DNA of 13,022 bases, taken from positions 1-13,022 of the forward strand of contig JASLFF010000552.1 of assembly GCA_030150795.1 (NCBI GenBank). The letters run 5' to 3'. The stretch comes from Terriglobales bacterium. GTDB lineage: Bacteria; Acidobacteriota; Terriglobia; Terriglobales; Gp1-AA117. The position numbers and the translations under genes were made by a program. Below are positions 1,926-12,874 of this stretch, piece by piece (within the stretch, counting starts at the first letter, position 1; the number at the start of each line of letters is the position of its first letter). Under the pieces are notes generated by a model that was given only the letters and a program-made list of their open reading frames with translations, made no database searches and was not told the DNA's origin.

Positions 1926-3029
1926 ATGGACCCTATAGTCATCACTACTCAAGAAGTTGCCCAGGCACAGATTCCGTTGCAGGGCGCTCAGGAAGTCCGC
2001 CCTAAAGTGCCGAACCCCGTCCCTTTGTGGACGCGCCTGTTATTTGTGCCGCTGGTTCTGGTGTTGCCGTTATTGTGCCTTGCTGCGCTGATCATGCGTA
2101 TTGCAACGCGCACTCAAGCGCCGCGTGTCCGGCAGACGTGGGCCTCATATCTTCTTACGCTGCTCATCATCAGCGGAATCTTTTCCACGATTCTGGCGGT
2201 CTTCACCATCTCGCTTGATACGGTTCCGGTACCGGACGCCATCAGCTCTTCTCTTTCTGATCTGGACGAGCGTGGCAACTTCCCCGCGCTGCCTGCGGGC
2301 AAGGAGATGTCCAGCGTGGAGTTAAGCTCGACTCTGAAGCCGCTGGTGCTGCTGGCCTCGCCTGCGGCAAAGCGTTGGTTCCAGCCGACTGCCGGCGTTT
2401 CCGGCCTGCTTGGCGCGGCGATGATTCTGCACTCAGATTCGCACGGCTATTTGCTGGCGACGGCCCGCCACGTGGCCGATGGTGAAAATTGGCGCTCGCG
2501 TACCGGCCCGCAAAAAGTAATGGTCTCAGTCGGCATGAACGGCTGGGCTTCAGCGCAGGTGGTTGGACGCCACAAGCATCTTGATGTCGCGCTGCTCTGG
2601 CTGGAGCGCCATTACGGCGACGCGGAATTTACCCAGCCGGTTGCAACATACGCCAGCGTGCAGATGGGCGAGAAGATTTTTGTCATCGGCCATCCTGAAG
2701 GCCTGAATTTTTCCGTGAGCAACGGAATCGTTTCGCGCACTCCGGGCAACGACGTGTTGCAGGTTTCCGCACCCATCAGCCCGGGCAACAGCGGCGGCCC
2801 TGTGTACGACGAATTTGGCAACCTGCTCGGCATCGTTACCTCCAAGGTAGCGCGCTCCATGGAGCCGGAGGCCGAGAACCTGAATTTCGCGGTCAGCACG
2901 GACGCGTTGCTGCATGAAGCTGACTGGGAGTTTGTTTCTGGCGGAAGCGCACCCAAGAACCTGCTCGCGGATTTCGTGCATCAGGCCAAGGTGCGCAAAG
3001 TGCCCATGACATCCGCGGCTGCCCGATAG
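1926..3029 (+). CDS. membrane-anchored trypsin-like serine protease (HtrA/DegS-like fold, no PDZ)
   Basis: This 367-residue protein has two N-terminal membrane segments (~35-57 and ~73-97) followed by a chymotrypsin-fold protease domain (~155-335). The catalytic triad is visible: His182 in LLATARHVAD, Asp220 in HKHLDVALLWL and Ser289 in ISPGNSGGPVYDEFGNLLGI. The loop between the two membrane segments is rich in Arg (R58, R62, R67, R69). By the positive-inside rule this puts the loop in the cytoplasm and the protease domain outside, as in DegS. Only about 30 residues follow the domain, so no PDZ domain is present, unlike most HtrA/DegS proteins. No good ribosome-binding site precedes the ATG at 1926. 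It is the first gene of the run, 13 bases before the ubiquitin-like gene. The protease call is firm; its place in the modification pathway is inferred from position only. Confidence 0.9.
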   Translation: MDPIVITTQEVAQAQIPLQGAQEVRPKVPNPVPLWTRLLFVPLVLVLPLLCLAALIMRIATRTQAPRVRQTWASYLLTLLIISGIFSTILAVFTISLDTVPVPDAISSSLSDLDERGNFPALPAGKEMSSVELSSTLKPLVLLASPAAKRWFQPTAGVSGLLGAAMILHSDSHGYLLATARHVADGENWRSRTGPQKVMVSVGMNGWASAQVVGRHKHLDVALLWLERHYGDAEFTQPVATYASVQMGEKIFVIGHPEGLNFSVSNGIVSRTPGNDVLQVSAPISPGNSGGPVYDEFGNLLGIVTSKVARSMEPEAENLNFAVSTDALLHEADWEFVSGGSAPKNLLADFVHQAKVRKVPMTSAAAR

Positions 3030-3042
3030 GAAAATCTCAAAC

Positions 3043-3318
3043 ATGGCTAACATAACTGTTACTGTTTACGATTCAACGGAAAACAAGCGCGTCCCGGTGG
3101 AGCTGCCGGATGACGCACCGGCGAATCGCATTATTGCCGTGCTGGTGGACAAGCTGCAATTGCCGCAAAACGGTCCAGACGGCGCTCCGCTCAGCTACAA
3201 GTTTCACCACAAGAACTCAGGCCGCCAGATCCAGGATTCGCAAACCCTCTCTGACGCTGCCGTAAAAGAAGGCGACATTCTCCGCCTTCAGCCGGAAATC
3301 ACCGCAGGAGCGCGATGA
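3043..3318 (+). CDS. small ubiquitin-like (beta-grasp) protein, YukD/EsaB-type
   Basis: This 91-residue protein has the order of elements of a ubiquitin fold. Strands ITVTVYD (4-10) and KRVPVELPD (15-23) are followed by helix ANRIIAVLVDKLQL (27-40), then strands around LSYKFHHKNSGRQI (49-62). It ends with TLSDAAVKEGDILRLQP, whose DILRLQ aligns with the last strand of ubiquitin. The sequence most resembles the YukD/EsaB family. The tail after the last strand is EITAGAR: there is no terminal Gly-Gly, so any conjugation would have to use a single Gly or follow trimming. Next to E1, JAB and E2 genes it is the obvious modifier. AGGA (3028-3031), overlapping the protease stop, is the likely ribosome-binding site. 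Its stop overlaps the E1 start (ATGA). Confidence 0.85.
   Translation: MANITVTVYDSTENKRVPVELPDDAPANRIIAVLVDKLQLPQNGPDGAPLSYKFHHKNSGRQIQDSQTLSDAAVKEGDILRLQPEITAGAR
3306..3310 (+). promoter_or_regulatory. ribosome-binding site of the E1 gene inside the Ubl C-terminal codons
   Basis: AGGAG (3306-3310) lies four bases before the E1 ATG at 3315, within the codons for the final Ala-Gly-Ala of the ubiquitin-like protein. Together with the ATGA overlap this indicates translational coupling of modifier and E1. Confidence 0.6.
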
Positions 3319-4526
3319 GCAAGTCTGTGGCATCGCCGAACGGCGGCGCATCCATTCCGGCCAGTGATGACAGGTTCAGCCGCTTCCGTCTCATTGGCTG
3401 GTGGGACCAGGAAAAGCTGCGCTCGGCGCGCGTGCTGGTGATCGGCGCTGGCGCGCTCGGCAATGAGATTCTCAAGAACATGGCGTTGCTCGGCTTCGCC
3501 AACATTGTGGTGGTTGATCTCGACTCCATTGAAGCTTCGAATCTTTCCCGCAGCATTCTTTATCGCGCATCCGACGTAGGCCGCCGCAAAGCTGATGTCG
3601 CAGCCGACGCTGTCAGAAATATTTTTCCTGAAGCTCGCGTTCACGCCATTACCGCCAACGTGGTCCATGGTCTTGGGTTGGGACTCTTCGCGTGGGCCGA
3701 TGTTGTGATCGCTGGACTCGACAACCGCGAAGCGCGTCTCTGGATCAATCGCGCCTGCTGGAAGATGAATAAGCCGTGGATCGATGGGGCCATTGAAGGC
3801 ATCAATGGTGTGGCCCGCGTATTCAAGGCCGGACAGCCGCCCTGTTATGAATGCACGCTCGGTGAAACCGACTGGGCCATCCTGAATAAGCGCATGTCAT
3901 GCAACCTGCTGGCGCTGGAAAACGATACCGAAGGCAAAGTCGCCACCACGCCCACCATCTCTTCCATCATTGCCGGACTGCAGGTGCAGGAAGCCGTGAA
4001 GCTGTTGCACGGGCTTCCGGTGCTGGCAGGCAAGGGTTTTATCTTCGAGGGGCTGAACCACACTTCTTACAAGGTTGAATACACTGAGAACCGCGATTGC
4101 ATGAGCCATTACACCTTTGCTGAGGTGATTCGGCTTCAGGAAGCGTCGCGTGATTTCTCTCTTGCCCAATTGCTGGATCGCGCCCGGCTCAATCTTGGAT
4201 CGAAGGATGTCGCTCTTGAGTTCAGCCGCGACGTGATTCACAAGCTGGCTTGTCCGGGTTGTGGTGCGGAAGAAGAGTTGTTTGCCGCTGTCGGCACCGT
4301 GCCTTACGCAAAAGGCAAATGCGCCAAAGACGGCCAGATGCGCGCCGTAATCACCGCCCACGGATATTCAGGCCACGAGTCATTTGGCGATCGAACTCTT
4401 GACCAGCTTGGTCTTCCGCTTTTTGATGTTGTTACCGCCCGCTCACCGGAACGCGAGATCGCCTACCTGATCGGCGGCGATGAAAAACAAGTGCTCGGAC
4501 AGAGTGCCATGGGGGCAGCACGCTGA
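3315..4526 (+). CDS. E1-like adenylating enzyme (ThiF/MoeB/HesA family)
   Basis: This 403-residue cytosolic enzyme should adenylate the C-terminus of the ubiquitin-like protein with ATP and take it up as a thioester. Residues ~20-265 are the ThiF domain. The nucleotide loop is GAGALGN (44-50), followed by VVVDLDSIEASNLSRS (65-80; D68 and D70 at the strand end, then the N-L-S-R element), DVGRRKAD (87-94) and VIAGLDNREAR (131-141). The C177-x2-C180 pair and the D261-C262-x2-H265 element are likely zinc ligands. Cys196 in KRMSCNLLA, just before the conserved VATTPTISSIIAGLQVQEAVKLLHG helix, is the best candidate for the thioester cysteine. The ~135-residue C-terminal extension contains C313-x2-C316 and C336 and may be a ubiquitin-fold/E2-recruiting domain; this is inferred. 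It overlaps the neighbours at both ends (ATGA upstream, TGATG downstream). Confidence 0.93.
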   Translation: MSKSVASPNGGASIPASDDRFSRFRLIGWWDQEKLRSARVLVIGAGALGNEILKNMALLGFANIVVVDLDSIEASNLSRSILYRASDVGRRKADVAADAVRNIFPEARVHAITANVVHGLGLGLFAWADVVIAGLDNREARLWINRACWKMNKPWIDGAIEGINGVARVFKAGQPPCYECTLGETDWAILNKRMSCNLLALENDTEGKVATTPTISSIIAGLQVQEAVKLLHGLPVLAGKGFIFEGLNHTSYKVEYTENRDCMSHYTFAEVIRLQEASRDFSLAQLLDRARLNLGSKDVALEFSRDVIHKLACPGCGAEEELFAAVGTVPYAKGKCAKDGQMRAVITAHGYSGHESFGDRTLDQLGLPLFDVVTARSPEREIAYLIGGDEKQVLGQSAMGAAR

Positions 4527-5422
4527 TGCCTAAGCCGGCCAAAGTAAAAGTCAGAGTTTCCACACAGCCTGTGGTGGTGATGGAGGCGGAAGTCGCGCGT
4601 AAAATCCGCCAGCACGCCCGCACGTCAATGAAGGCGGAAGTTTGCGGCGTGCTGATCGGCAACACTGACCATGAGCGCATGACCGTGGAAGCATGCATTC
4701 CCGGAGTGAATGCCGCGCAAGGGGGAGCGCACGTCACCTTCACCCAGGATGCCTGGGAACATATTTATAAGATCAAGGACAAGGAGTATCCGGACGATAA
4801 GATCGTCGGCTGGTACCACTCGCATCCCGGCTTTGGAGTATTTCTTTCCGAGCACGATCTTTTCATACACCAGAATTTCTTTTCCAATCCTCAGCAGGTG
4901 GCATGGGTTTACGATCCGCACACGGACGAAGAAGGGTGCTTCGGCTGGATTGGCGGCAATATAGAAAAGCTTTCTGCCATCCGCGTGGGCTATTCCCAGA
5001 GCGTTGAGATTACCGGCACAGCTGCCCATGAATTTGAAGAAGAAGAAGACGGCGCGCTGGATTCCATGGTCCGTACTGATCGTGAACAACGACCTGCAGA
5101 ACCGTCTTGGATGAAGTGGATGAGCATGATTGTGGGATATCTGGCTGCTTTCATGGTGGGATTTGTGCTCTGTTATTTATTCCTGAATTGGCGATGGGCT
5201 CCTCTCTTTGACCGATTGGAAAAAGATGAGCAGGTCATTGAGCAGATCAAACAATTCGCAATGCAGCATCCGGAAATTTTCAATCCAGGCGTCACAAGTC
5301 CGGATGGCCTGAGCCAGTCTGCGGGAGGAGGAAGCCAACCGCAGCCCTCTCCACAACAGCACGCTCCGGCGCAAAAAACAAACGACAAGGCAAGTGGCAA
5401 AGGAAACAATGGCAAACAGTGA
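4526..5422 (+). CDS. JAB/MPN (JAMM) metallopeptidase with C-terminal membrane anchor
   Basis: This 298-residue protein is a predicted zinc isopeptidase, the class that removes or matures ubiquitin-like modifiers. The JAMM motif is complete: Glu38 in MKAEVCGVLIG, then HSHPGFGVFLSEHD (98-111), which fits H-x-H-x7-S-x2-D exactly (H98, H100, S108, D111). The catalytic domain spans ~15-165. An acidic stretch FEEEEDG (~170-176) leads to a single membrane helix at ~200-221 (MIVGYLAAFMVGFVLCYLFL). The ~77-residue C-terminal tail has a charged segment (DRLEKDEQVIEQIKQF) and a Ser/Pro/Gln/Gly-rich end. The catalytic domain must be cytoplasmic to meet E1/E2 products. The start ATG shares a base with the E1 stop. 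Its end overlaps the FHA gene by 14 bases. A membrane anchor is unusual for bacterial JAB proteins, which are normally soluble. Confidence 0.93.
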   Translation: MPKPAKVKVRVSTQPVVVMEAEVARKIRQHARTSMKAEVCGVLIGNTDHERMTVEACIPGVNAAQGGAHVTFTQDAWEHIYKIKDKEYPDDKIVGWYHSHPGFGVFLSEHDLFIHQNFFSNPQQVAWVYDPHTDEEGCFGWIGGNIEKLSAIRVGYSQSVEITGTAAHEFEEEEDGALDSMVRTDREQRPAEPSWMKWMSMIVGYLAAFMVGFVLCYLFLNWRWAPLFDRLEKDEQVIEQIKQFAMQHPEIFNPGVTSPDGLSQSAGGGSQPQPSPQQHAPAQKTNDKASGKGNNGKQ

Positions 5423-6473
5423 CGACAAACCCGCATTGAAAATCACTCTGGAAGACCTTGCCAGCGTGGAACTACCCGCTGCTGTCCCTGCCGGAAGCAT
5501 GATGCCAGTTGCGGCAGGCGCCAAACAGTATGGCAACATCGCTGCGCCTGCTGACGGTCCGGCAGTAGTAACGGAAGAGAAAGGACACATCTTTTTACAG
5601 GGATGGTTCTATCTGGGTGTTGCGGGAATGCTTGGCGCGCTCATCGGATGGGCCATTTGTGAGCCTTTCTTTGAAGAACATGGGAGGCGAAGCTGGCTTA
5701 GCTTGATTACTCTTCCAGTGATCGTGATGTTGATTTGCCTGGGCCTGGGAATTGCAGAAAGCATTGTGGAGCGTTCCGGCAAGAAAGCCCTGATTCGCGG
5801 GCTGACCGCTTTAGGTTTGGGCGCGGTCTTTGGAATATTTTTTGATATCGGCGCTGAAGTTGTGTTTGTGATGTTGCGCCAGATCGTTTTTGCTCTTGGC
5901 GTGCAGACGGTAAAAAATCCCGCGTTCTGGCTGGTTCGCGGCATTGCCTGGGCTGTGTTTGGGGCAGCGGGCGGCCTGGTTTATGGACTGGTGGACCGTT
6001 CCGGCGCCAAGATCAAATACGGAATTTTCGGCGGGCTCATTGGCGCCGGGCTGGGCGGAACAATTTTTGATCCCATCAGCTTTGCCACAAAGACCGGCAC
6101 TCTCAGCCGCGCCGTGGGCTTTGCCCTGGTTGGCCTGGCCACCGGTGTCGCGATCGGCATTGTGGAAAGCGCACTGAAAGACCGCTGGCTTTACGTGGCG
6201 TCAGGCCCGCTGGCAGGGAAGCAATTCATCCTTTATAAGCCGATGACCATCATCGGCAGCAGCCAGGCGTCAGACATCTATTTGTTCAAGGACACCAGCA
6301 TTCTTCCGCAGCATGGAGTCATTGAGCTGCGCGGCGCGCAGACGTTTATCCGTTCCGCGGGGACGGTATTCGTTTCCGGCGCACCCGTGCGTAACCAACG
6401 CGCATTACAAAGCGGCGATCTCATACAGATTGGGCGGTATGCGTTTCATTTCCGTGAAAGGCAAAGAAACTAA
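5409..6473 (+). CDS. polytopic membrane protein with C-terminal degenerate FHA domain
   Basis: I prefer the ATG at 5409 (354 residues): AGGA at 5401-5404 precedes it by four bases. A GTG at 5394 would add five residues. After a ~60-residue soluble N-terminus, about six Gly-rich hydrophobic segments follow (~66-85, 96-118, 128-155, 174-195, 203-222, 232-253). Residues ~258-352 form an FHA-like domain: WLYVASGPLAGKQFILYK, IIGSSQASDIYLFKDTSILP, QHGVIEL, GTVFVSGAPV and GDLIQIGRYAFHF. Three residues that normally contact phosphothreonine are replaced. The Arg of G-R is Ser284, the Ser of S-R-x-H-A is Leu, and the Asn of V-N-G is Ser323. His302 of the same motif is kept. It may bind partners without phosphorylation. 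It overlaps JAB (14 bases) and the RING gene (TAATG). Confidence 0.85.
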   Translation: MANSDDKPALKITLEDLASVELPAAVPAGSMMPVAAGAKQYGNIAAPADGPAVVTEEKGHIFLQGWFYLGVAGMLGALIGWAICEPFFEEHGRRSWLSLITLPVIVMLICLGLGIAESIVERSGKKALIRGLTALGLGAVFGIFFDIGAEVVFVMLRQIVFALGVQTVKNPAFWLVRGIAWAVFGAAGGLVYGLVDRSGAKIKYGIFGGLIGAGLGGTIFDPISFATKTGTLSRAVGFALVGLATGVAIGIVESALKDRWLYVASGPLAGKQFILYKPMTIIGSSQASDIYLFKDTSILPQHGVIELRGAQTFIRSAGTVFVSGAPVRNQRALQSGDLIQIGRYAFHFRERQRN

Positions 6474-7108
6474 TGGCCGAGCCGGTCTGCCCATATTGCC
6501 GCATGCCTTTTGACGATGCTTCTCCGCCAAAGATTTTCTGTACCGCGTGCGGAATGCCCCACCATGAAGATTGTTATCTGGAAAATGGGGGCTGCACCGT
6601 TTTTGGCTGCAAGCGCGCGCCCGCCGATGATCCCAAATTGCAAGTTTCACAAAGCGATTTAAGCGCGGTATCGATTCCGGGCCAGCAGTATGCTCCTGTT
6701 GCGCCGCAATACGCTCCCGTGGCACCGCAGCCGACTCCAGTGGCGCCGCAGCCCGCTCCGGTGCAGGGGTATCAACCATCGCGCTACAGCGGGCCGCTGG
6801 GATTGTCGCAAGCGGCTGCCACTGCACCCGCACAGGTTGCAGCGCCGTCGCCCACTCCAACGCAGCCAGCGTATGTCGCGCCGGCCTACAGTTCCACGTA
6901 TAAAAGCCGGACAAGCTACATTGTTCTCGGCATTTTTCTTGGCGCGTTAGGCATACATAACTTTTATGCCGGATACACCGGACGTGCGGTGGGCCAGCTA
7001 TGTCTGACGGTTTTGACGCTGGGCTATCTGGGCATCGTGTCGTGGATCTGGGCCATCATCGAAATCTGCATCGTGGAAAAGGACAGCACCGGCCTTCGTT
7101 TCAGCTGA
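6473..7108 (+). CDS. Prok-RING-like zinc finger fused to a TM2 membrane domain (candidate E3)
   Basis: This 211-residue protein starts with a cysteine/histidine-rich module (residues 6-46). It has C6-x2-C9, C23-x2-C26, H30/H31, C34, C41 and C46, in the context FCTACGMPHHEDCYLENGGC. This spacing and the H-x2-x-C-x-E-N-G-G-C element match the prokaryotic RING (treble-clef) family. A proline-rich linker (~52-143) follows, containing a seven-residue repeat (Y/P-A/T-P-V-A-P-Q). The last ~65 residues are a TM2 domain: KSRTSYIVLGIFLGALGIHN, FYAGYTGRAVGQ and a second helix LGIVSWIWAIIEICIV. In TM2 proteins both ends usually face the cytoplasm, so the finger could meet a charged E2. RING-type E3 activity is inferred from family and neighbours. 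It overlaps the FHA gene (TAATG) and lies 15 bases before the GYF_2 gene. Confidence 0.87.
   Translation: MAEPVCPYCRMPFDDASPPKIFCTACGMPHHEDCYLENGGCTVFGCKRAPADDPKLQVSQSDLSAVSIPGQQYAPVAPQYAPVAPQPTPVAPQPAPVQGYQPSRYSGPLGLSQAAATAPAQVAAPSPTPTQPAYVAPAYSSTYKSRTSYIVLGIFLGALGIHNFYAGYTGRAVGQLCLTVLTLGYLGIVSWIWAIIEICIVEKDSTGLRFS
6689..6766 (+). repeat. 21-base tandem repeat encoding a Pro-rich heptapeptide
   Basis: Three full 21-base units (6689-6709, 6710-6730, 6731-6751) and a partial fourth encode YAPVAPQ, YAPVAPQ, PTPVAPQ and PAPVQ in the linker between RING and TM2 domains. The copies differ mainly at third codon positions, so the peptide appears to be maintained rather than recently duplicated. Confidence 0.75.
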
Positions 7109-7123
7109 GTGCATGGATGACGA

Positions 7124-7846
7124 ATGAAATACTACATTCAACGCCAACTCAATGAATACGGTCCTTATACCCTGGCCGATCTCCAGCGTTACGTCGCGCA
7201 GGGCAGCATCTCGCTTTCTGACATGACGCGTAGCGAGGGCATGACGGAGTGGACGCCCGTATCGCAAGTCATCGGCAACATTCCCATTCCTGCTCCAATC
7301 CAGTCAGGGTATGCGCCCGGCACGCCTGCTTATGGTGGAGGAACGGTCTACGGCGGCGGCACAACCCTGTACGGCGCGCAAGGCGCAATGCCCGCGATAA
7401 CCACAGGACCGGTACCGCCAGATTTTCACTGGGCACTTGTCCTGGTGATCGGATTTGTGACCTGTGGCCTGTTCTGGTGGGTTTGGTGGATCGTGGAAGC
7501 CGCGTTCATAAGGAAGGTGAAATCAGACAGCAAGGCCCTTCTTTTTGTCATCCTGTCATTCGTCTGCTATTTCGCCGGCGGTTTCATCAGAGGGCTGATG
7601 CGGGCCATGAATCCTGGCGATACAGTTAATTATGGCGTGCCATTCTCTCTCATCGGGCTTTTGTTGTTCGTGATTGCCGAATTCCAGATGAAGAACGATT
7701 TGGAGGAGTATTACAACTCTGTGGAACCGATTGATCTCCGTCTTCACGGCGGCATGACTTTCTTCTTCGCCGTGTGGTACTTTCAGCATCACTTTTCACG
7801 GATTGCTCAGTGGAAGAAAACGGGCGTGCTTGCACCGCAGGGCTAA
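7124..7846 (+). CDS. GYF_2 (DUF4339) domain membrane protein
   Basis: This is a 240-residue protein. Residues 1-50 form a GYF_2 domain: MKYYIQRQLNEYGPYTLADL, then VAQGSISLSDMTRSEGMTEW. These domains are usually taken as peptide-binding modules, often for proline-rich ligands. A Gly/Tyr/Pro-rich linker (~51-98, with AYGGGTVYGGGTTLYG) leads to hydrophobic segments at ~102-124, ~138-158 and ~171-187. The C-terminal region, with MTFFFAVWYFQHHFSRIAQW, resembles the ends of DUF4234-type membrane proteins. The neighbouring RING protein carries a long proline-rich linker, which would be an attractive ligand for the GYF_2 domain; this is an inference. GGATGA shortly before the ATG is a weak ribosome-binding site. 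Its stop overlaps the next gene (TAATG). Confidence 0.82.
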   Translation: MKYYIQRQLNEYGPYTLADLQRYVAQGSISLSDMTRSEGMTEWTPVSQVIGNIPIPAPIQSGYAPGTPAYGGGTVYGGGTTLYGAQGAMPAITTGPVPPDFHWALVLVIGFVTCGLFWWVWWIVEAAFIRKVKSDSKALLFVILSFVCYFAGGFIRGLMRAMNPGDTVNYGVPFSLIGLLLFVIAEFQMKNDLEEYYNSVEPIDLRLHGGMTFFFAVWYFQHHFSRIAQWKKTGVLAPQG

Positions 7847-8226
7847 TGAAACAGCGAACCATTACCGGAATGGCAATCGCGGCGCTGGTTGGCGGCTTAG
7901 GCGTGGTATACCGGTTTCCGCCAGCGGAGCATTCGTTCTATCCTCGTTGCCCGATCTATCTCACGACGCACTGGCTATGCCCAGGTTGTGGCAGCACGCG
8001 AGCACTGCATGCGCTTCTGCATCTAGATTTTCATAGCGCGCTGCATTACAACGCTTTGTTCACATTGCTGTTCCCGTTTGCATGCCTGTGGTTTGGTTTC
8101 ATCTGCTATCGGATCTTACGGTATGATCAGTTTCCGACTCTGGTATTTCCGCGCAGCGTGGCGGTTTGCCTGACCGTGACGGTCGTCCTGTTCACGGTCG
8201 CCAGAAATACTATGTTCGCTTTTTGA
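7846..8226 (+). CDS. DUF2752 family membrane protein
   Basis: The protein has 126 residues when started at the ATG overlapping the upstream stop (TAATG). The frame is open further upstream, but that part overlaps the GYF_2 gene. The DUF2752 signature is present: C35-P, then C45-PGC48-GSTRALHALLHLDFHSALHYNALF. Hydrophobic segments lie at ~7-22, ~68-90 and ~104-122. The biochemical function of DUF2752 is not known to me; the conserved cysteines suggest metal binding or a structural thiol pair. Its place between two genes of a ubiquitin-like operon, with an overlap on one side and a seven-base gap on the other, argues that it belongs to the same unit. Confidence 0.82.
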   Translation: MKQRTITGMAIAALVGGLGVVYRFPPAEHSFYPRCPIYLTTHWLCPGCGSTRALHALLHLDFHSALHYNALFTLLFPFACLWFGFICYRILRYDQFPTLVFPRSVAVCLTVTVVLFTVARNTMFAF

Positions 8227-8233
8227 GTTGCTT

Positions 8234-8842
8234 ATGTTGTCACCCAGAATTCGCCGGTTAAAACTCGATCACGACTCGCTCTTCAAGCGCTTTTCCGGAT
8301 GGCCTTTGATCCGCATTGTGGGCACGGCCGGGATGCCGCCCGAGCTGTATCGTTTTCAATACCTTGTCCGTGGACTGTATGTGGCCCCGGATGGGGCGAT
8401 CCTGGAGCGCAACGATCATTTGCTGGAAGTGAATCTTTCCCTTGGATACCCGCGCCGTGCGCCTCAGTGCCGCATGCTCACGCCGGTGTTTCATCCAAAT
8501 TTCGACGACAGTTCTGTCTGCATCGGAGATTTCTGGGCCGCTTCAGAGTCTCTGGACGATCTGATTATCCGCATTGGCCGCATGATTTCCTATCAGGAAT
8601 ACAACACCAAGAGCCCACTAAACGGGTTGGCGGCAAAATGGGCCGCACAGAACCCCACCCTTTTGCCGGTCGATCCTCGTCCTATTGCTCCGCCGCTCGA
8701 TCAACTGGTGGAGGAATCAAGTTTGTCAACACCTTTTGCGTCTCAATCTGCCGTTGCTCCAATCCCACAGCCCCTGGTTGAAACAGCTTCTGCCGCGCCG
8801 CAAGGTGAAGATCCGTGGGAAAAGAAAATTGTGATTTCATAA
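8234..8842 (+). CDS. E2-like ubiquitin-conjugating (UBC-fold) protein
   Basis: This 202-residue protein is a predicted E2, which would take the ubiquitin-like protein from the E1 as a thioester. I chose the ATG at 8234, with TTGAG (8223-8227) six bases upstream. A TTG at 8228 is less likely. The N-terminal ~65 residues give the first helix and strands. The E2 core is SLGYPRRAPQCRMLTPVFHP, then NFDDSSVCIGDFW. The HPN triad is at 87-89 and Cys96 is the predicted active site, seven positions after Asn89 (eight in canonical E2s). The later helix region is SLDDLIIRIGRMISYQEYNT, with SPLNGLAAKWA like the PLN-A segment of eukaryotic E2s. The last ~60 residues are Pro/Ser/Ala-rich and not part of the fold. 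It is the last gene of the run, seven bases after DUF2752. Confidence 0.88.
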   Translation: MLSPRIRRLKLDHDSLFKRFSGWPLIRIVGTAGMPPELYRFQYLVRGLYVAPDGAILERNDHLLEVNLSLGYPRRAPQCRMLTPVFHPNFDDSSVCIGDFWAASESLDDLIIRIGRMISYQEYNTKSPLNGLAAKWAAQNPTLLPVDPRPIAPPLDQLVEESSLSTPFASQSAVAPIPQPLVETASAAPQGEDPWEKKIVIS

Positions 8843-9171: not shown

Positions 9172-9236
9172 GGCTTCCTCTGTTCATGTTGATTCGACAG
9201 ACGCAGCATAACCCAAACAAAAATGAGGTCACAGAA
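9172..9236 (+). promoter_or_regulatory. conserved leader of EXORDIUM-like gene 1, with hairpin
   Basis: The leader shares a layout and much sequence with those at 10516-10578 and 11750-11809: GGCTTC, TCTGTTCAT, a spacer, (A/G)ACAGAC, then GAGGTCA before the ATG. Here TCTGTT (9179-9184) pairs with GACAGA (9196-9201), the last pair being U-G. GAGGTCA (9225-9231) carries the ribosome-binding site. The distance from hairpin to ATG is 35 bases. Confidence 0.65.
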
Positions 9237-10217
9237 ATGAAACTTCCCCAGGGAAAAATCAAATTTGCATCCGTTTTTCTCTTCTTGATCTTGGCTGTGA
9301 ACTTTATGGCCGCGCAAAAGCCACTCACAAACCCTGACGGCGATCTCGTGCCGAACGGCAAGCACGGGAGTTCTGGACAAACCCAGTCAGCGGTGCAGCA
9401 GGGTCCGGTGGGCCAGGCTGTGGTCACCGGCAACGGCATCAACTATCATGGCGGCCCTGTATTAAAAGGCAATCCTGTTCCGATCTACCTGATCTTTTAC
9501 GGCAATTGGAATGGCACAGGCTCCAACACGGCAGCCAGCGTCAGCCTGATCGAGCATTTCGTTAGCACGCTCGGCAACAGCGCCATTGAGCATGTGGCTA
9601 CCACCTACGGCGACAACACGGGCAATGTAAGCGGCAACGTCAGTCTGGGCGGCGTGGCCACCGTGAGCAGCTCAAGCAACCTGAGTGACAGCAGTTTGCA
9701 GACCACGGTCAGCAATGTCCTCAACAGTGGCGCGCTGCCGCGCAATGCCAACGGCATATATATGGTGCTGACGTCCTCAAACATCAATGAAACCTCCGGA
9801 TTCTGCACCCAGTACTGCGGCTTCCATACCCATGCAACGCTGGGCGGAGTCGATATTAAGTACGCTTTTGTCGGCAACCCGGATCGTTGCCCCAGCGGCT
9901 GCGAAATCCAGTCCACCGGCCCCAACAGCCCATCCCCGGGCGCAGGCGGCGCAGATGGCCTGATCAACGTGCTCTCACACGAACAGTTTGAAGCGATCAC
10001 AGATCCGGATCTGAACGCATGGTTTGACAACAGCGGCCAGGAAGATTCCGATAAGTGCAACTTCAACTTCGGCACAACTTCAACCTGCAATGCCAACGGG
10101 CTTTGCTCTTCTGGCGCCGGTGCAGCCAAGTATAACCAGACCTTTGGCAGCAACAACTGGATGATCCAGCAGCAGTGGGAAAATGCTGCCGGCGGCAAGT
10201 GCGTCCAGCACCTGTAA
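9237..10217 (+). CDS. secreted EXORDIUM/phosphate-induced-1-like protein, paralog 1
   Basis: This is a 326-residue exported protein. I chose the ATG at 9237, preceded by GAGG eight bases away. The upstream ATG at 9186 lies in the leader hairpin loop and would spoil the signal peptide. Residues 1-26 (KIKFASVFLFLILAVNFMAA) are a signal peptide, probably cut before Gln27. The body matches the plant EXORDIUM/Phi-1 family. Its landmarks are INYHGGPVLKGNPVPIYLIF, YGNW, IYMVLTSSNINETSGFCTQY, CGFHTH, AFVGNPDRCPSGC, GGADGLINVLSHEQFEAITD and a C-terminal WMIQQQWE...GKC. H248-E249-x2-E252 matches the family HE-x2-E region and could bind metal, though no activity is known. Eight cysteines are visible (190, 194, 218, 222, 274, 284, 290, 322), consistent with disulfides. 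Plant relatives are apoplastic growth-related proteins of unknown chemistry. Confidence 0.88.
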   Translation: MKLPQGKIKFASVFLFLILAVNFMAAQKPLTNPDGDLVPNGKHGSSGQTQSAVQQGPVGQAVVTGNGINYHGGPVLKGNPVPIYLIFYGNWNGTGSNTAASVSLIEHFVSTLGNSAIEHVATTYGDNTGNVSGNVSLGGVATVSSSSNLSDSSLQTTVSNVLNSGALPRNANGIYMVLTSSNINETSGFCTQYCGFHTHATLGGVDIKYAFVGNPDRCPSGCEIQSTGPNSPSPGAGGADGLINVLSHEQFEAITDPDLNAWFDNSGQEDSDKCNFNFGTTSTCNANGLCSSGAGAAKYNQTFGSNNWMIQQQWENAAGGKCVQHL

Positions 10218-10515
10218 ACAATTATTTGTGGGCCGCCCGCTCCTGGCGGCCCCTTCTTTCCTTTTCGAAAGCGCCAACCGTTGGCGAATTATGTAAGAAG
10301 CTGTTCGTAATGGGAAAACAAAGCATAGCTGGATTGCCAGCTTTGCAGACGCTTTTGAAAACCGCGTATCGCCGCGAAAAATCATGCGATTCTGTGATTG
10401 TATCCGGCCAAGTCTCGTGATACGCTTTCGCACATTCTGTTCTGCTCGATTCCGGGGGGCCGCGAATCAGAATCAACCTTCATTCATAAATGTCGATCTC
10501 ATATAAATGCTTTTC
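10218..10515. other. spacer between EXORDIUM-like genes 1 and 2
   Basis: No gene is seen. After the terminator come two further hairpin candidates. CGCCAA-ccg-TTGGCG (10272-10286) is the first. The second has ten-base arms at 10323-10332 and 10337-10346 with one mismatch and loop ATTG. A TATAAA at 10502-10507, nine bases before the conserved leader, is a plausible -10 box for gene 2. Confidence 0.45.
10230..10270 (+). terminator. intrinsic terminator after EXORDIUM-like gene 1
   Basis: GGGCCGCC (10230-10237) and GGCGGCCC (10245-10252) form a perfect 8-bp GC-rich stem with a seven-base loop. A pyrimidine-rich, T-containing run to about 10265 follows. It lies 12 bases after the stop codon. Confidence 0.75.
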
Positions 10516-10578
10516 GGCTTCTTCTGTTCATTTCATTCAACAGACGCAGCAACACCTTACAGCGAGGTCATTGCAACA
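10516..10578 (+). promoter_or_regulatory. conserved leader of EXORDIUM-like gene 2, with hairpin
   Basis: It has the same layout as the leaders of genes 1 and 3. TCTGTT (10523-10528) pairs perfectly with AACAGA (10539-10544) around a ten-base loop. GAGGTCA (10564-10570) precedes the ATG, with GAGG ending 11 bases before it. The hairpin ends 34 bases before the ATG. Confidence 0.65.
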
Positions 10579-11553
10579 ATGAAAAATCCCCTGAGATATG
10601 CGTTAGCTCTTCTCTTTGTTCTGTTGGCCGCCAATTTCGTGATGGCGCAATCGGTACTTCATCCATCAGTTCCTTCTGGCGACAGGATGGTTCCTAACGG
10701 TGACGGTACAGCCGCGGCAGTGGCTGGCAGCGCCCGGCCAGTCGGCGATGCCGTAGTCACCGGCAACGGCATCAACTATAACGGCGGCCCAGTCCTGCAC
10801 GGTAGCCCGGTCCCCATCTACATCATTTGGTACGGAAACTGGAGCGGCACGGGATCGAACACGGCGGCCACCCAAACCCTTCTCCAAGGATTCCTGTCGA
10901 GCACGTCTCTGGGCGGCTCCAGCTATGAGCAGATCAACACCCTGTACGGCGACAATAGTGGAAACGTGAGCGGCCATCTGAATTTCGTCCAGGCGGTCTC
11001 TGACACCGGCTCGCAGGGAACACGGCTCAGGAACAGTAATATCACCGCGGCCATTTCCGCCCAGTTAACTGGAGGCCATCTGCCAACCGATCCTAACGGC
11101 ATCTATATCTTTGCAACCTCCTCGAACATCAAAGAGAGCGGATTCTGCACCCAGTTCTGCGGCTTCCACACCCATCAGACGATCAATGGCGCCGACATCA
11201 AGTGGGCCTTCATTGGCAACACTGACCAGTGCCCCAGCGGCTGCGAAATCCAGGCCACCGGTCCCAACAGCCCGGCAACGGGCGTGGGCGGCGCGGACGG
11301 CATGGCCAATGTGATGACACACGAAACAGAAGAAGCCATCACTGATCCGGATCTCAATGCCTGGTTTGATTCCAGCGGCAATGAAGACGCGGACAAGTGC
11401 AACTTCAAATTCGGTCCTACACAGACGGCACCCAACGGAGCCCGTTTCAACCAGACCTTTGGCGGCCACAACTGGATGATCCAGATGGAATGGGAAAACA
11501 GCCGCGGCGGCGGTTGCGACCAGGTTCTTGGCGGAGCATTCTTTACCAGCTAG
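10579..11553 (+). CDS. secreted EXORDIUM/phosphate-induced-1-like protein, paralog 2
   Basis: This 324-residue exported paralog starts at the ATG at 10579; an upstream in-frame ATG at 10507 lies before the conserved leader. The signal peptide is KNPLRYALALLFVLLAANFV-MA, cut before Gln24. Landmarks are INYNGGPVLHGSPVPIYIIW, YGNWSGTGSNTAAT, IYIFATSSNIKESGFCTQFC, GFHTH, DQCPSGCEIQ, GGADGMANVMTHETEEAITD and PDLNAWFD. It is the most divergent of the three. HExxE is kept as HETEE. The loop after DKCNFKFG lacks the cysteine pair found in paralogs 1 and 3, and the C-terminus is extended to GGCDQVLGGAFFTS. It has its own leader and terminator, so it is probably transcribed alone. Confidence 0.87.
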   Translation: MKNPLRYALALLFVLLAANFVMAQSVLHPSVPSGDRMVPNGDGTAAAVAGSARPVGDAVVTGNGINYNGGPVLHGSPVPIYIIWYGNWSGTGSNTAATQTLLQGFLSSTSLGGSSYEQINTLYGDNSGNVSGHLNFVQAVSDTGSQGTRLRNSNITAAISAQLTGGHLPTDPNGIYIFATSSNIKESGFCTQFCGFHTHQTINGADIKWAFIGNTDQCPSGCEIQATGPNSPATGVGGADGMANVMTHETEEAITDPDLNAWFDSSGNEDADKCNFKFGPTQTAPNGARFNQTFGGHNWMIQMEWENSRGGGCDQVLGGAFFTS

Positions 11554-11569
11554 TTCTATCTTTTACGAT

Positions 11570-11597
11570 AAAGCCGTCCGGCATGCCGGACGGCTTT
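11570..11597 (+). terminator. strong intrinsic terminator after EXORDIUM-like gene 2
   Basis: Bases 11571-11596 form a perfect 26-base palindrome. The arms are GCCGTCCGG and CCGGACGGC around a GCATGC-type centre, with flanking A and T runs and seven T residues after the GC arm. It begins about 17 bases after the stop codon. The A-run on the other flank means it could also work from the opposite side. Confidence 0.9.
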
Positions 11598-11749
11598 TTT
11601 TCACCGAACATTGGCTTTCAAACAATTTCCCAAAATGGGACTTGCCTCATTTGAGTTTGCTTTCTGGTACCAGCAGAAGTTCGCGTGCTTTTCAGAAAGA
11701 AAATCGTAGTACACTCCGCAAACGGACCGCACCCGATTTCAATTACTCT

Positions 11750-11809
11750 GGCCTCTTCTGTTCATTTTTCAACAGACAGTCGCAAAATCTCTCAAAGTGA
11801 GGTCATCGA
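11750..11809 (+). promoter_or_regulatory. conserved leader of EXORDIUM-like gene 3, with hairpin
   Basis: TCTGTT (11757-11762) pairs perfectly with AACAGA (11771-11776) around an eight-base loop. GAGGTCA (11799-11805) is the ribosome-binding region, seven bases from GAGG to the ATG. The hairpin ends 33 bases before the ATG. Loop and spacer sequences differ from those of genes 1 and 2, while stem and ribosome-binding site are kept. Confidence 0.65.
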
Positions 11810-12874
11810 ATGAAACTCCCCTTTGGAAAGATGCAATATGCTTTTGTTTTCCTTCTTGTAATTCTGACCACCAACTTTTTGATGGCGCAGGAACTACTCA
11901 AACAGCACGTCGACAACCCCGGACAAACGGCAACGGTCGATAATCCCGGACAGACCGCAGCGGTCGATAACCCGGGACAGACGCCAATGAAAGATACGGC
12001 GGCCACCGGCCACGTTCCGGGCGTTCTTCCGCAGACCATGGATGCAATTCCCGGCCCAGTCGGCTTGGCGGTCGTTACCGGCAATGGGATCAACTACCAC
12101 GGCGGCCCAGTGCTGAAGGGCAACCCGGTCAAGTTTTATGTGATCTGGTACGGCAACTGGTCGGGCACAGGATCGAATACTGCCGCCACAGTCAGCCTGG
12201 TTGAGCACTTCATCAACACGCTGGGCAACACGCCCTATGAAAAAATTGCCACAACCTACGGCGACAACACTGGCAATGTAATCGGCAACGTGACCCTTGG
12301 CGGCGCAATTTTTGTGAGCACCACAACCAATCTGACCGATGCCCTTCTGCAGACCACGGTTAAGAACGCGCTTACCAGCGGTGCCTTGCCCACCGATGCA
12401 GGTGGCGTGTATTTCGTGCTCAGCTCTTCCAACATCAACGAAACTTCCGGATTCTGCACCCAATACTGCGGCTTTCATACTCATGCCACGCTCAACGGCG
12501 CGGACATTAAGTATGCGTTTGTCGGCAATCCTGACCGCTGCCAGAGCGCTTGCGAAATCCAAACCACGGGCCCCAACAGTCCTGCCACAGGCGTGGGTGG
12601 CGCGGACGGCCTGATCGACGTGTTTGCGCACGAACAATTTGAAGCCGTCACCGATCCTGACCTGAACGCCTGGTTTGATTCCAGCGGCCAGGAAGACTCC
12701 GACAAGTGCAACTTCAACTTTGGAACTACCAACACTTGCGTTTCAGGCAGTCTATGCAGCCCGGCGGGCATTGCCGCGCATGCAAAATGGAACGTAAGCT
12801 TTGGCAACAACGACTGGATGATTCAGCAGCAATGGAAGAACTCGGGTGGCGGCGGTTGCGTCCTGCATCTGTGA
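11810..12874 (+). CDS. secreted EXORDIUM/phosphate-induced-1-like protein, paralog 3
   Basis: This is a 354-residue exported paralog, closer to paralog 1 than to 2. The signal peptide is MKLPFGKMQYAFVFLLVILT-TNFLMA, cut before Gln27. A tandem nine-residue repeat follows (VDNPGQTAT, VDNPGQTAA, VDNPGQTPM; residues 34-60) that the other two paralogs lack. The conserved body has INYHGGPVLKGNPVKFYVIW, YGNWSGTGSNTAAT, VYFVLSSSNINETSGFCTQY, CGFHTH, DRCQSACEIQ, GGADGLIDVFAHEQFEAVTD, PDLNAWFD and a C-terminal WMIQQQWK...GGCVLHL. The HE-x2-E motif is kept as HEQFE. The cysteine pair in NTCVSGSLC is present, as in paralog 1. The protein would be released to the periplasm or outside; its function is unknown. 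Confidence 0.88.
   Translation: MKLPFGKMQYAFVFLLVILTTNFLMAQELLKQHVDNPGQTATVDNPGQTAAVDNPGQTPMKDTAATGHVPGVLPQTMDAIPGPVGLAVVTGNGINYHGGPVLKGNPVKFYVIWYGNWSGTGSNTAATVSLVEHFINTLGNTPYEKIATTYGDNTGNVIGNVTLGGAIFVSTTTNLTDALLQTTVKNALTSGALPTDAGGVYFVLSSSNINETSGFCTQYCGFHTHATLNGADIKYAFVGNPDRCQSACEIQTTGPNSPATGVGGADGLIDVFAHEQFEAVTDPDLNAWFDSSGQEDSDKCNFNFGTTNTCVSGSLCSPAGIAAHAKWNVSFGNNDWMIQQQWKNSGGGGCVLHL
11909..11989 (+). repeat. three 27-base tandem repeats encoding VDNPGQT-x-x
   Basis: Units 11909-11935, 11936-11962 and 11963-11989 encode VDNPGQTAT, VDNPGQTAA and VDNPGQTPM just after the signal peptide of paralog 3. The DNA copies differ mostly at third codon positions. Such a stretch looks like a flexible, exposed linker. 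Confidence 0.85.

What the first reader, a model, noticed from the sequence alone, without database searches (positions are those of the whole stretch)
1926..8842. Membrane-centred bacterial ubiquitin-like conjugation operon with all component classes
Seen: one tightly packed run encodes a ubiquitin-fold protein, E1 (GAGALG, candidate Cys196), E2 (HPN plus Cys96), complete JAMM isopeptidase, RING-like finger, a protease and FHA/GYF_2/DUF2752 membrane proteins. Known: prokaryotic clusters of E1/E2/JAB/Ubl, and Prok-RING proteins, have been reported as a class by comparative genomics; the Bil antiphage system has Ubl, E2, JAB and E1. Inference: this version acts at the membrane, since JAB and RING carry membrane segments and four more genes encode membrane proteins. 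I know of no experimental description of this nine-gene arrangement.
Basis: partly seen in the sequence, partly recalled or inferred. Interest (0 to 1): 0.9.

Follow-up and report, generated by a model that had tools for sequence, protein, structure and literature searches.

The report
Bacterial ubiquitin-like tagging system at membrane
A soil acidobacterium carries a tightly linked gene set that looks like a complete ubiquitin-type protein-tagging pathway fixed to its cell membrane, of a kind predicted before for bacteria, with new evidence of how the tag is matured and how well the set is conserved.

Summary
Nine co-directional, mostly overlapping genes at 1926-8842 encode a membrane trypsin/HtrA-type protease, YukD-family Ubl, E1, JAMM-TM, FHA-like multi-TM, Prok-RING-TM2, GYF_2-TM, DUF2752 and E2 proteins. 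Of 22 close loci examined (window included), 16 are whole and keep this order (DUF2752 found in 10 of 16); 5 are cut by contig ends, 1 is split. Active sites are intact: E2 HPN+Cys 21/21, JAMM 17/17, E1 Cys196 17/17, RING ligands 19/19 readable.

New here: the Ubl has a sharp C-terminal boundary. QPEITAG occurs in 17/17 genomic copies and 117/120 database relatives; 9/17 and 55/120 stop at that Gly, the rest carry varied tails. So the mature modifier very probably ends in Ala-Gly; the window's "AR" is a propeptide, probably removed by the Rpn11-like JAMM.

Best reading: a membrane-anchored, reversible Ubl-conjugation cascade. The class (Acidobacteria included) was predicted in 2011, so this is a new variant, not a new kind. 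Conjugation, E3 activity, substrates and role are unproven; anti-phage defence is the main rival.

The parts
1926..3029 (+). Membrane-anchored trypsin/HtrA-type serine protease (367 aa), two N-terminal TM segments, triad H182/D220/S289; protease domain perhaps periplasmic
   Evidence: Trypsin_2 2.4e-20; triad in 16 of 17, the exception L060 being read in pieces; K/R-rich loop between the two TMs and few K/R after the second in 6 of 6 looked at, though the N-terminal flank has 2-3 K/R too
3043..3318 (+). Ubl modifier precursor, YukD family (91 aa), ...QPEITAG|AR; Gly89 the probable mature C-terminus
   Evidence: YukD 7.2e-14; QPEITAG in 17/17 genomic copies and 117/120 database relatives, followed by nothing or by varied tails
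3315..4526 (+). E1 (403 aa): ThiF adenylation domain, candidate catalytic Cys196, C-terminal domain with a zinc ribbon (C313, C316, C336)
   Evidence: ThiF 3.5e-56; Cys196 invariant; single-stretch PDB scores SAE2 100 bits and UBA3 92 bits against 75 for MccB and ThiF
4526..5422 (+). JAMM (JAB) isopeptidase with one TM-like segment at residues 202-220
   Evidence: JAB 1.6e-15; best PDB matches RPN11 5.2e-10 and an N11-like protein (6fjv) 9.6e-10; JAMM residues 17/17; TM-like segment 16/17
5409..6473 (+). Multi-TM protein with C-terminal FHA-like domain (alternative start 5394)
   Evidence: Yop-YscD_cpl 4.3e-9, FHA 8.9e-7; GR-type Arg absent in 17 of 19
6473..7108 (+). Prok-RING-like C4HC3 finger (C6 C9 C23 C26 H31 C34 C41 C46), Pro-rich linker, TM2 membrane domain: candidate E3
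   Evidence: Prok-RING_1 1.5e-6, below its cut-off, TM2 8.3e-12; eight ligands in 19/19 readable copies
7124..7846 (+). GYF_2 domain plus TM protein
   Evidence: GYF_2 4.2e-10; in 16/16 whole operons, several copies in L059 and L062
7846..8226 (+). DUF2752 small membrane protein, accessory (found in 10 of 16 whole operons)
   Evidence: DUF2752 1.6e-17 (scanned from 7843); distribution
8228..8842 (+). E2 (HPN 89-91, Cys98) with variable linker and a C-terminal xPW-type motif; ATG start probably 8234
   Evidence: UQ_con 1.2e-8; best PDB profile match UBE2C 9.3e-7, Cys aligned; HPN+Cys 21/21

Best explanation
It is a membrane-anchored, reversible ubiquitin-like conjugation cascade. The YukD-family Ubl is made as a precursor; the Rpn11-like JAMM (or, less likely, another protease) trims it to a C-terminal Ala-Gly (boundary shown by comparison; the enzyme is inferred). 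The E1 adenylates that Gly and takes the Ubl on Cys196, passes it to E2 Cys98 (inferred from intact active sites), and the membrane RING-TM2 protein acts as E3, bringing E2~Ubl to membrane or membrane-near substrates (inferred). The tethered JAMM removes the tag: it stays intact in the nine genomic copies where the Ubl gene already ends at Gly, so maturation cannot be its only job. The FHA-like, GYF_2 and DUF2752 proteins are probably scaffold or recruitment factors, and the perhaps periplasmic HtrA-like protease couples the system to the envelope. Most likely role: membrane-protein quality control or envelope-stress signalling. I put about 0.75 on the chemistry and about 0.4 on that role.
For: Intact catalytic residues across 17-21 copies; same order in 16/16 whole operons; component trees over 14 operons share 53 of 77 splits with the concatenated tree; sharp Ubl C-terminal boundary, with four different tails on the tree beside tail-less copies; Ubl the slowest-evolving component, 83-100% identity to the window against 63-96% E1, 64-89% E2, 40-74% JAB and 42-95% protease; purifying selection; JAMM closest to RPN11; E1 closer to SAE2/UBA3-type E1s than to ThiF/MoeB by sequence and led by UBA3 chains in Foldseek, from a poor model; TM segments; RING-like proteins, below Pfam cut-offs, also beside divergent Acidobacteria clusters L017, L018 and L034. 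Experimental precedent: C. subterraneum Rpn11 trims a 9-residue Ub tail and that E1/E2/RING cascade works in vitro (passages of PMC6043591 and PMC5654768).
Against: No biochemical data. Prok-RING_1 scores just below its cut-off; RING model failed. E1 model is poor outside the C-terminal domain. The residue after the last RING Cys, a usual linchpin position (recalled), varies. YukD itself was reported not to be conjugated (PMC1779556 passage). In L058 the E2 stands alone, with a Ubl gene about 47 kb away, and in L064, cut at the RING gene, no GYF gene lies between RING and E2. Seven splits supported above 0.9 conflict with the concatenated tree, and the RING tree shares only 3 of 11.
Confidence: 0.62

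Rival explanations
1. It is an anti-phage or other conflict system of the Bil/Bub type: the Ubl is conjugated to a phage or host membrane protein on infection, with the membrane proteins as effectors.
For: A review says that characterised bacterial Ubl-conjugation operons appear to act mainly in phage defence (passage of PMC12687455). L015 has IetA/IetS anti-phage genes starting about 360 bp after its E2 and an IS110 transposase upstream. A divergent relative, L018, has an apparent Ubl-E2 fusion with E1, JAB and a RING-like protein, resembling published conflict systems (passage of PMC7159879). Presence is patchy: close copies in 16 of 399 sampled genomes of the class.
Against: Of 20 flanking proteins from 11 loci scanned against PADLOC, the only strong hits were IetA and IetS at L015; two more were partial (PDC-S10 5.3e-10 at L030, Csa3 2.6e-5 on an Lrp regulator) (a selection of flanks, not all). 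In the genus of the window's close relatives 6 of 9 genomes have a close copy, and OYE/Lrp or Phi_1-like flanking genes recur there (by eye). The Ubl hardly changes. With the E2 as query, one plasmid match, 30% identical, and none in phages. Bub operons have not been shown to protect against phage (PMC13373217 passage).
Confidence: 0.2
2. The Ubl is attached to a membrane lipid, such as phosphatidylethanolamine, as Atg8 is, and the tethered JAMM releases it.
For: Modifier ends in a single Gly after a non-Gly residue, as Atg8 and UFM1 do (recalled); six of the nine proteins have TM-like segments.
Against: The E2 matches UBE2C/UBE2A-type E2s with HPN; a RING-type candidate E3 is present; JAMM enzymes are known for isopeptide bonds (recalled).
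Confidence: 0.06
3. The Ubl is a non-conjugated YukD/EsaB-type part of a type VII-like secretion or membrane complex.
For: Best Pfam family is YukD, which sits with ESAT-6 export genes in low-GC Gram-positives and actinobacteria (PMC1779556 passage).
Against: No FtsK/EssC or WXG100 family among the 12 window proteins scanned; E1, E2 and JAMM are catalytically intact; the Gly boundary has no reason in that role.
Confidence: 0.04
4. A sulfur-carrier system (ThiS/MoaD-like) for a cofactor or thiolation.
For: E1 is a ThiF-family enzyme.
Against: HPN-type E2 and RING are constant partners; no cofactor or rhodanese family among the nine operon proteins.
Confidence: 0.02

Closest known systems
Prokaryotic Ubl/E1/E2/JAB/RING operons predicted by Burroughs, Iyer and Aravind 2011 (paper not held; seen through passages of PMC4197634, PMC7159879 and PMC11354881)
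   Same: Same component classes, C4HC3 prokaryotic RING, Acidobacteria named among carriers; that a YukD-like Ubl may be conjugated is my recollection of its abstract
Caldiarchaeum subterraneum ubiquitin operon (PMC5654768, PMC6043591 passages)
   Same: Single Ubl precursor with a tail, E1, E2, RING and an Rpn11-like JAMM in or beside one cluster
   Different: That system ends in Gly-Gly; here Ala-Gly, a YukD-family Ubl, JAMM and RING with TM segments, and added protease, FHA-like, GYF_2 and DUF2752 membrane proteins
Bil (BilABCD) anti-phage system (PMC11354881 passages)
   Same: Ubl, E1, E2 and JAB in one operon
   Different: BilA has two Ubl domains, BilD two adenylation domains, BilB a CEHH-type E2; here single Ubl, single ThiF domain, HPN-type E2, RING-like and membrane partners
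Bub operons (PMC13373217 passages)
   Same: Bacterial Ubl-pathway operon class; 219 of 544 reported there sit with CapW or CapH+CapP regulators
   Different: The only regulator family seen among the 12 window proteins scanned is Lrp/AsnC; the defining Bub papers are not held

Membership tests
Prokaryotic RING-containing Ubl-conjugation operon (Burroughs 2011 class) | Ubl, E1, E2, JAB and RING encoded together | tested here: met
   Pfam on the window, RING just below its cut-off; 16 of 16 whole operons
Prokaryotic RING-containing Ubl-conjugation operon (Burroughs 2011 class) | Catalytic residues of E1, E2 and JAB present | tested here: met
   17/17, 21/21, 17/17
Prokaryotic RING-containing Ubl-conjugation operon (Burroughs 2011 class) | RING finger binds E2 and promotes transfer | tested here: inconclusive
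   Eight ligands intact but Prok-RING_1 28.5 bits vs cut-off 29.1 and model pLDDT 48.7
Prokaryotic RING-containing Ubl-conjugation operon (Burroughs 2011 class) | Covalent Ubl conjugates formed | not testable with these tools
   Needs biochemistry
C. subterraneum-type (eukaryote-like) ubiquitin system | Ub precursor with a tail removed by an Rpn11-like JAMM | tested here: inconclusive
   Tail boundary shown, JAMM Rpn11-like; cleavage itself not testable here
C. subterraneum-type (eukaryote-like) ubiquitin system | Mature Gly-Gly C-terminus | tested here: not met
   Ala-Gly in 17/17, 9 of which stop there; L030 (AG|GQ) alone among the 17 could in principle be cut after a Gly-Gly
C. subterraneum-type (eukaryote-like) ubiquitin system | E1 C-terminal ubiquitin-fold domain | tested here: inconclusive
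   VIA alignments to UBA3 chains run to model residue about 390 at rmsd about 17 over two domains; no sequence match
Bil | Modifier with two Ubl domains | tested here: not met
   91-aa single-domain Ubl
Bil | E1 with inactive plus active adenylation domains | tested here: not met
   One ThiF stretch, residues 24-256 of 403; the C-terminal part matches only zinc ribbons, weakly
Bil | E2 with CEHH motif | tested here: not met
   HPN upstream of the Cys in 21/21; the Cys-x5-Glu spacing is absent after C98 in the window sequence
Bub | Bub protein families | not tested
   Definition papers not held
YukD/type VII secretion | Neighbouring FtsK/EssC ATPase and WXG100 genes | tested here: not met
   None among the 12 window proteins scanned; genes beyond the window not held
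Sulfur carrier (ThiS/MoaD) systems | No E2; cofactor or rhodanese genes | tested here: not met
   E2 in the same run in 16/16, no such families among the nine proteins

The most novel reading that the evidence does not exclude
A housekeeping (non-defence) bacterial ubiquitin system: a complete E1-E2-RING-JAMM cascade built into the cytoplasmic membrane, using a YukD-family modifier that matures at Ala-Gly and is far more frozen in sequence than its partners, to tag membrane proteins (or even lipids) for envelope quality control, with a periplasmic HtrA-like protease as partner.
Probability: 0.3. Interest if true: 0.82.

Novelty: new variant of a known kind. Interest (0 to 1): 0.6.

Why it matters
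If true, bacteria run a full ubiquitin-type cascade with a RING protein at the membrane as part of ordinary physiology, not only for phage defence. The YukD family, known from type VII secretion, would gain a conjugated branch with a defined C-terminus. The exact predicted conjugation site (Gly89, preceded by QPEITA) makes the question directly testable: a trypsin digest should leave LQPEITAG on substrate lysines, a remnant that can be sought in proteomes of carriers. It also gives a compact bacterial comparator for the archaeal ubiquitin operon and the origin of the eukaryotic system.

Tried and rejected
RING fold: model from 3 sequences had mean pLDDT 48.7, so no fold search was made with it. 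E1 fold: 47-sequence model had mean pLDDT 54.8, with 270-395 the better part; the Foldseek list is led by UBA3 chains and the VIA list by UBA3/SAE2-type chains aligned mostly over residues 27-136; the C-terminal domain was not folded alone, and its profile matched nothing relevant in PDB, and in Pfam only zinc ribbons, weakly; a ubiquitin-fold domain is therefore only suggested. FHA as phospho-reader: rejected as an assumption. Promoter and terminator scan: 1 and 7 sites, below the shuffled means of 4.6 and 10.4: no information. The protease as the Ubl-maturing enzyme: disfavoured by tentative topology. Sulfur-carrier and secretion readings: disfavoured, see rivals. Taxonomic reach outside Acidobacteriota was barely tested: one genome-contig scan gave 3 loci, the sampled genomes are all from the phylum of G002, and the plasmid search gave one distant cyanobacterial case. 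Literature: eight answered searches in a library of open-licence papers; listings and passages only, no paper read whole. I found no experimental account of this operon there, which does not show that none exists. Dropped rows: L063 (divergent cluster) was left out of the counts, L064 out of those and its RING fragment out of the ligand count; L060, L062 and L033 proteins that lie in pieces were represented by their longest piece. Only the best 120 of 3133, 4122 and 7938 database hits were listed.
Full report
WHAT IS THERE. The window holds nine co-directional genes at 1926-8842, with overlaps of 1-4 nt or more at five joints and gaps of at most 15 nt at the others. Domain scans give, in order: Trypsin_2 protease, YukD-family Ubl, ThiF-type E1, JAB, FHA-like multi-TM protein, Prok-RING_1 (just under its cut-off) + TM2, GYF_2, DUF2752 and a UQ_con E2. 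NCBIfam shows no row above its curated cut-off for any of them (for E1 25 of 28 rows shown). PADLOC gives only domain-level matches to E1, JAB and protease models. No whole genome is held for the window; nearest named relatives are mostly Candidatus Angelobacter and Terriglobia/Acidobacteriaceae MAGs, with one Candidatus Binatia name, so the source is very probably an acidobacterium.

CONSERVATION. I examined 22 close loci including the window. Sixteen carry the whole run; all sixteen keep the order protease-Ubl-E1-JAB-FHA-RING-GYF-(DUF2752)-E2, with DUF2752 found in 10 of 16 and extra GYF copies in L059 and L062; some genes of L060 and L062 read in pieces. Five are cut by contig ends (L003, L033, L038, L054, L064); in L064 no GYF gene lies between the RING fragment and E2. 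In one, L058, the E2 is alone and a Ubl gene lies about 47 kb off on the same contig; a gene beside its E2 resembles one beside the L057 operon (by eye), which suggests rearrangement. Trees of seven components over 14 operons share 53 of 77 splits with the concatenated tree (3 of 11 for RING to 11 of 11 for FHA); seven splits supported above 0.9 conflict, in the protease, E1, JAB, RING and GYF trees. Close copies (E below 1e-70) were found in 3 of 297 genomes of the phylum sample, 16 of 399 of the class sample, 8 of 150 of the family sample and 6 of 9 of the genus; these samples overlap and include seed genomes. Inside that genus the flanks recur (Lrp regulator upstream, Phi_1-like proteins downstream; by eye); elsewhere they differ.

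ACTIVE SITES. E2 HPN and Cys: 21 of 21. JAMM E-HSH-S-D: 17 of 17. E1 nucleotide-site residues, C177, C180 and C196: 17 of 17; C196 also in all 121 sequences of the database set, window included. E1 zinc-ribbon Cys313/316/336: 15 of 17, L059 differing and L062 being in pieces. RING ligands: 19 of 19 readable, L064 being a fragment. Protease triad: 16 of 17, L060 being in pieces. NG86 dN/dS of the window against L001 and L002 is 0 to 0.205 in 13 of 14 comparisons, one being saturated.

THE UBL TAIL. The genomic copies all read QPEITAG and then: nothing in 9, AR in 5 (one genus), GQ, CR and AAREN in one each, 17 in all. In the 120 best database relatives 117 read QPEITAG, one HPEITAG and one QPSITAG; one (P0201) departs before the AG. 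Of the 119, 55 stop at the Gly and 64 carry 1-54 further residues, 50 different tails; AR alone occurs 11 times and 33 tails begin with Ala, 7 with Gly (clustered at 90% identity, so not independent). On the operon tree the tail state changes at least four times, judged by eye. More distant Acidobacteria Ubls end AG or GG plus a short tail (L016, L019, L020, L035, L036, L063), and a plasmid Ubl of Crinalium ends GG|Y while its neighbour has no such end. What precedes the Gly is fixed and what follows is free: the pattern expected of a Ubl propeptide. C. subterraneum Rpn11 removes such a tail experimentally (PMC6043591, PMC5654768 passages). The nine copies without a tail still keep an intact JAMM, so deconjugation is its likely lasting job.

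RELATIONSHIPS. JAMM: nearest solved structures are RPN11 chains and an archaeal N11-like protein (organisms recalled). E1: by single matched stretch SAE2 100 bits and UBA3 92 bits, against 75 for MccB and ThiF and 59 for UBA5; UBA3 chains lead the Foldseek list, though the model is poor (mean pLDDT 54.8). E2: UBE2C, UBE2B and relatives. Ubl: only weak matches, to polyubiquitin repeats and to the Caldiarchaeum Ubl 2mqj at 0.011. RING: only weak matches, best 0.18 to a protein that I recall as a PHD-type.

MEMBRANE. TM-like segments occur in JAB (16/17), RING (18/19), protease (16/17), FHA (19/19), GYF (20/20) and DUF2752 (14/14), and not in Ubl (17) or E2 (20); the same simple hydropathy rule fires within the E1 adenylation domain in 7 of 17. 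The protease has two TMs with a K/R-rich loop between them in 6 of 6 examined, which tentatively places its catalytic domain outside, away from the Ubl. Divergent Acidobacteria clusters show the theme too: JAB with a C-terminal hydrophobic segment in L017 and RING-like proteins with an N-terminal one in L034 and L036 (by eye; Pfam support for the L034 RING is weak and absent for L036).

HOW IT PROBABLY WORKS, AND WHAT IS NOT SHOWN. See Best explanation. Shown by comparison: component set, order, intact active sites, Gly boundary, TM segments. Inferred: thioester relay, JAMM maturation, E3 role, substrates, envelope role. The main rival, phage defence, is kept alive by the IetAS neighbour at L015 and by class precedent.

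NOVELTY. PMC4197634 states that Acidobacteria carry related operons, citing Burroughs 2011 (passage); that paper is not held, so I cannot say how closely it described this set. I file it as a new variant of a known kind.

Noticed in passing
L034:8070-14591: In G415, placed in the same genus as the window's close relatives, a divergent E1-E2-JAB cluster with a RING-like gene lies just upstream of type VI secretion genes (T6SS_VasE 2.2e-41, DotU 1.5e-28).
   Followed up: partly
L015:10251-13875: IetA/IetS anti-phage genes directly downstream of the operon, IS110 transposase upstream.
   Followed up: partly
window 9186-12874: Three similar secreted-type proteins downstream; the first matches Phi_1 (phosphate-induced/EXORDIUM-like, 5.1e-24). 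Similar arrays follow the operon in several genomes of the genus (by eye).
   Followed up: partly
window 8807-8842: E2 C-terminal xPW-type motif (window DPWEKKIVIS) kept after a variable linker in 17 of 21 copies, absent in L031, L032, L062 and L064: possible docking peptide.
   Followed up: no
L018:4977-10704: Apparent Ubl-E2 fusion with E1, JAB and a Prok-RING_1-like protein (2.3e-4), resembling published conflict systems.
   Followed up: partly
L017:6035-12885: Cluster with an apparent tandem Ubl, E2 with zinc-ribbon-like tail, JAB with C-terminal hydrophobic segment, and a vWA protein ending in a Prok-RING_1-like finger.
   Followed up: no
L069, L070 (G586): Two Ubl-like genes in tandem on one contig of G586, one divergent.
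   Followed up: no
database Ubl set, one protein of P0121-P0240: One Ubl relative runs on after QPEITAG into what reads like the E1 N-terminus: a possible Ubl-E1 fusion or read-through.
   Followed up: no
L039:6257-9734: A cyanobacterial mobilizable plasmid carries ThiF, two small Ubl-like genes, E2 and Mov34/MPN in a row; one Ubl ends GG|Y.
   Followed up: partly
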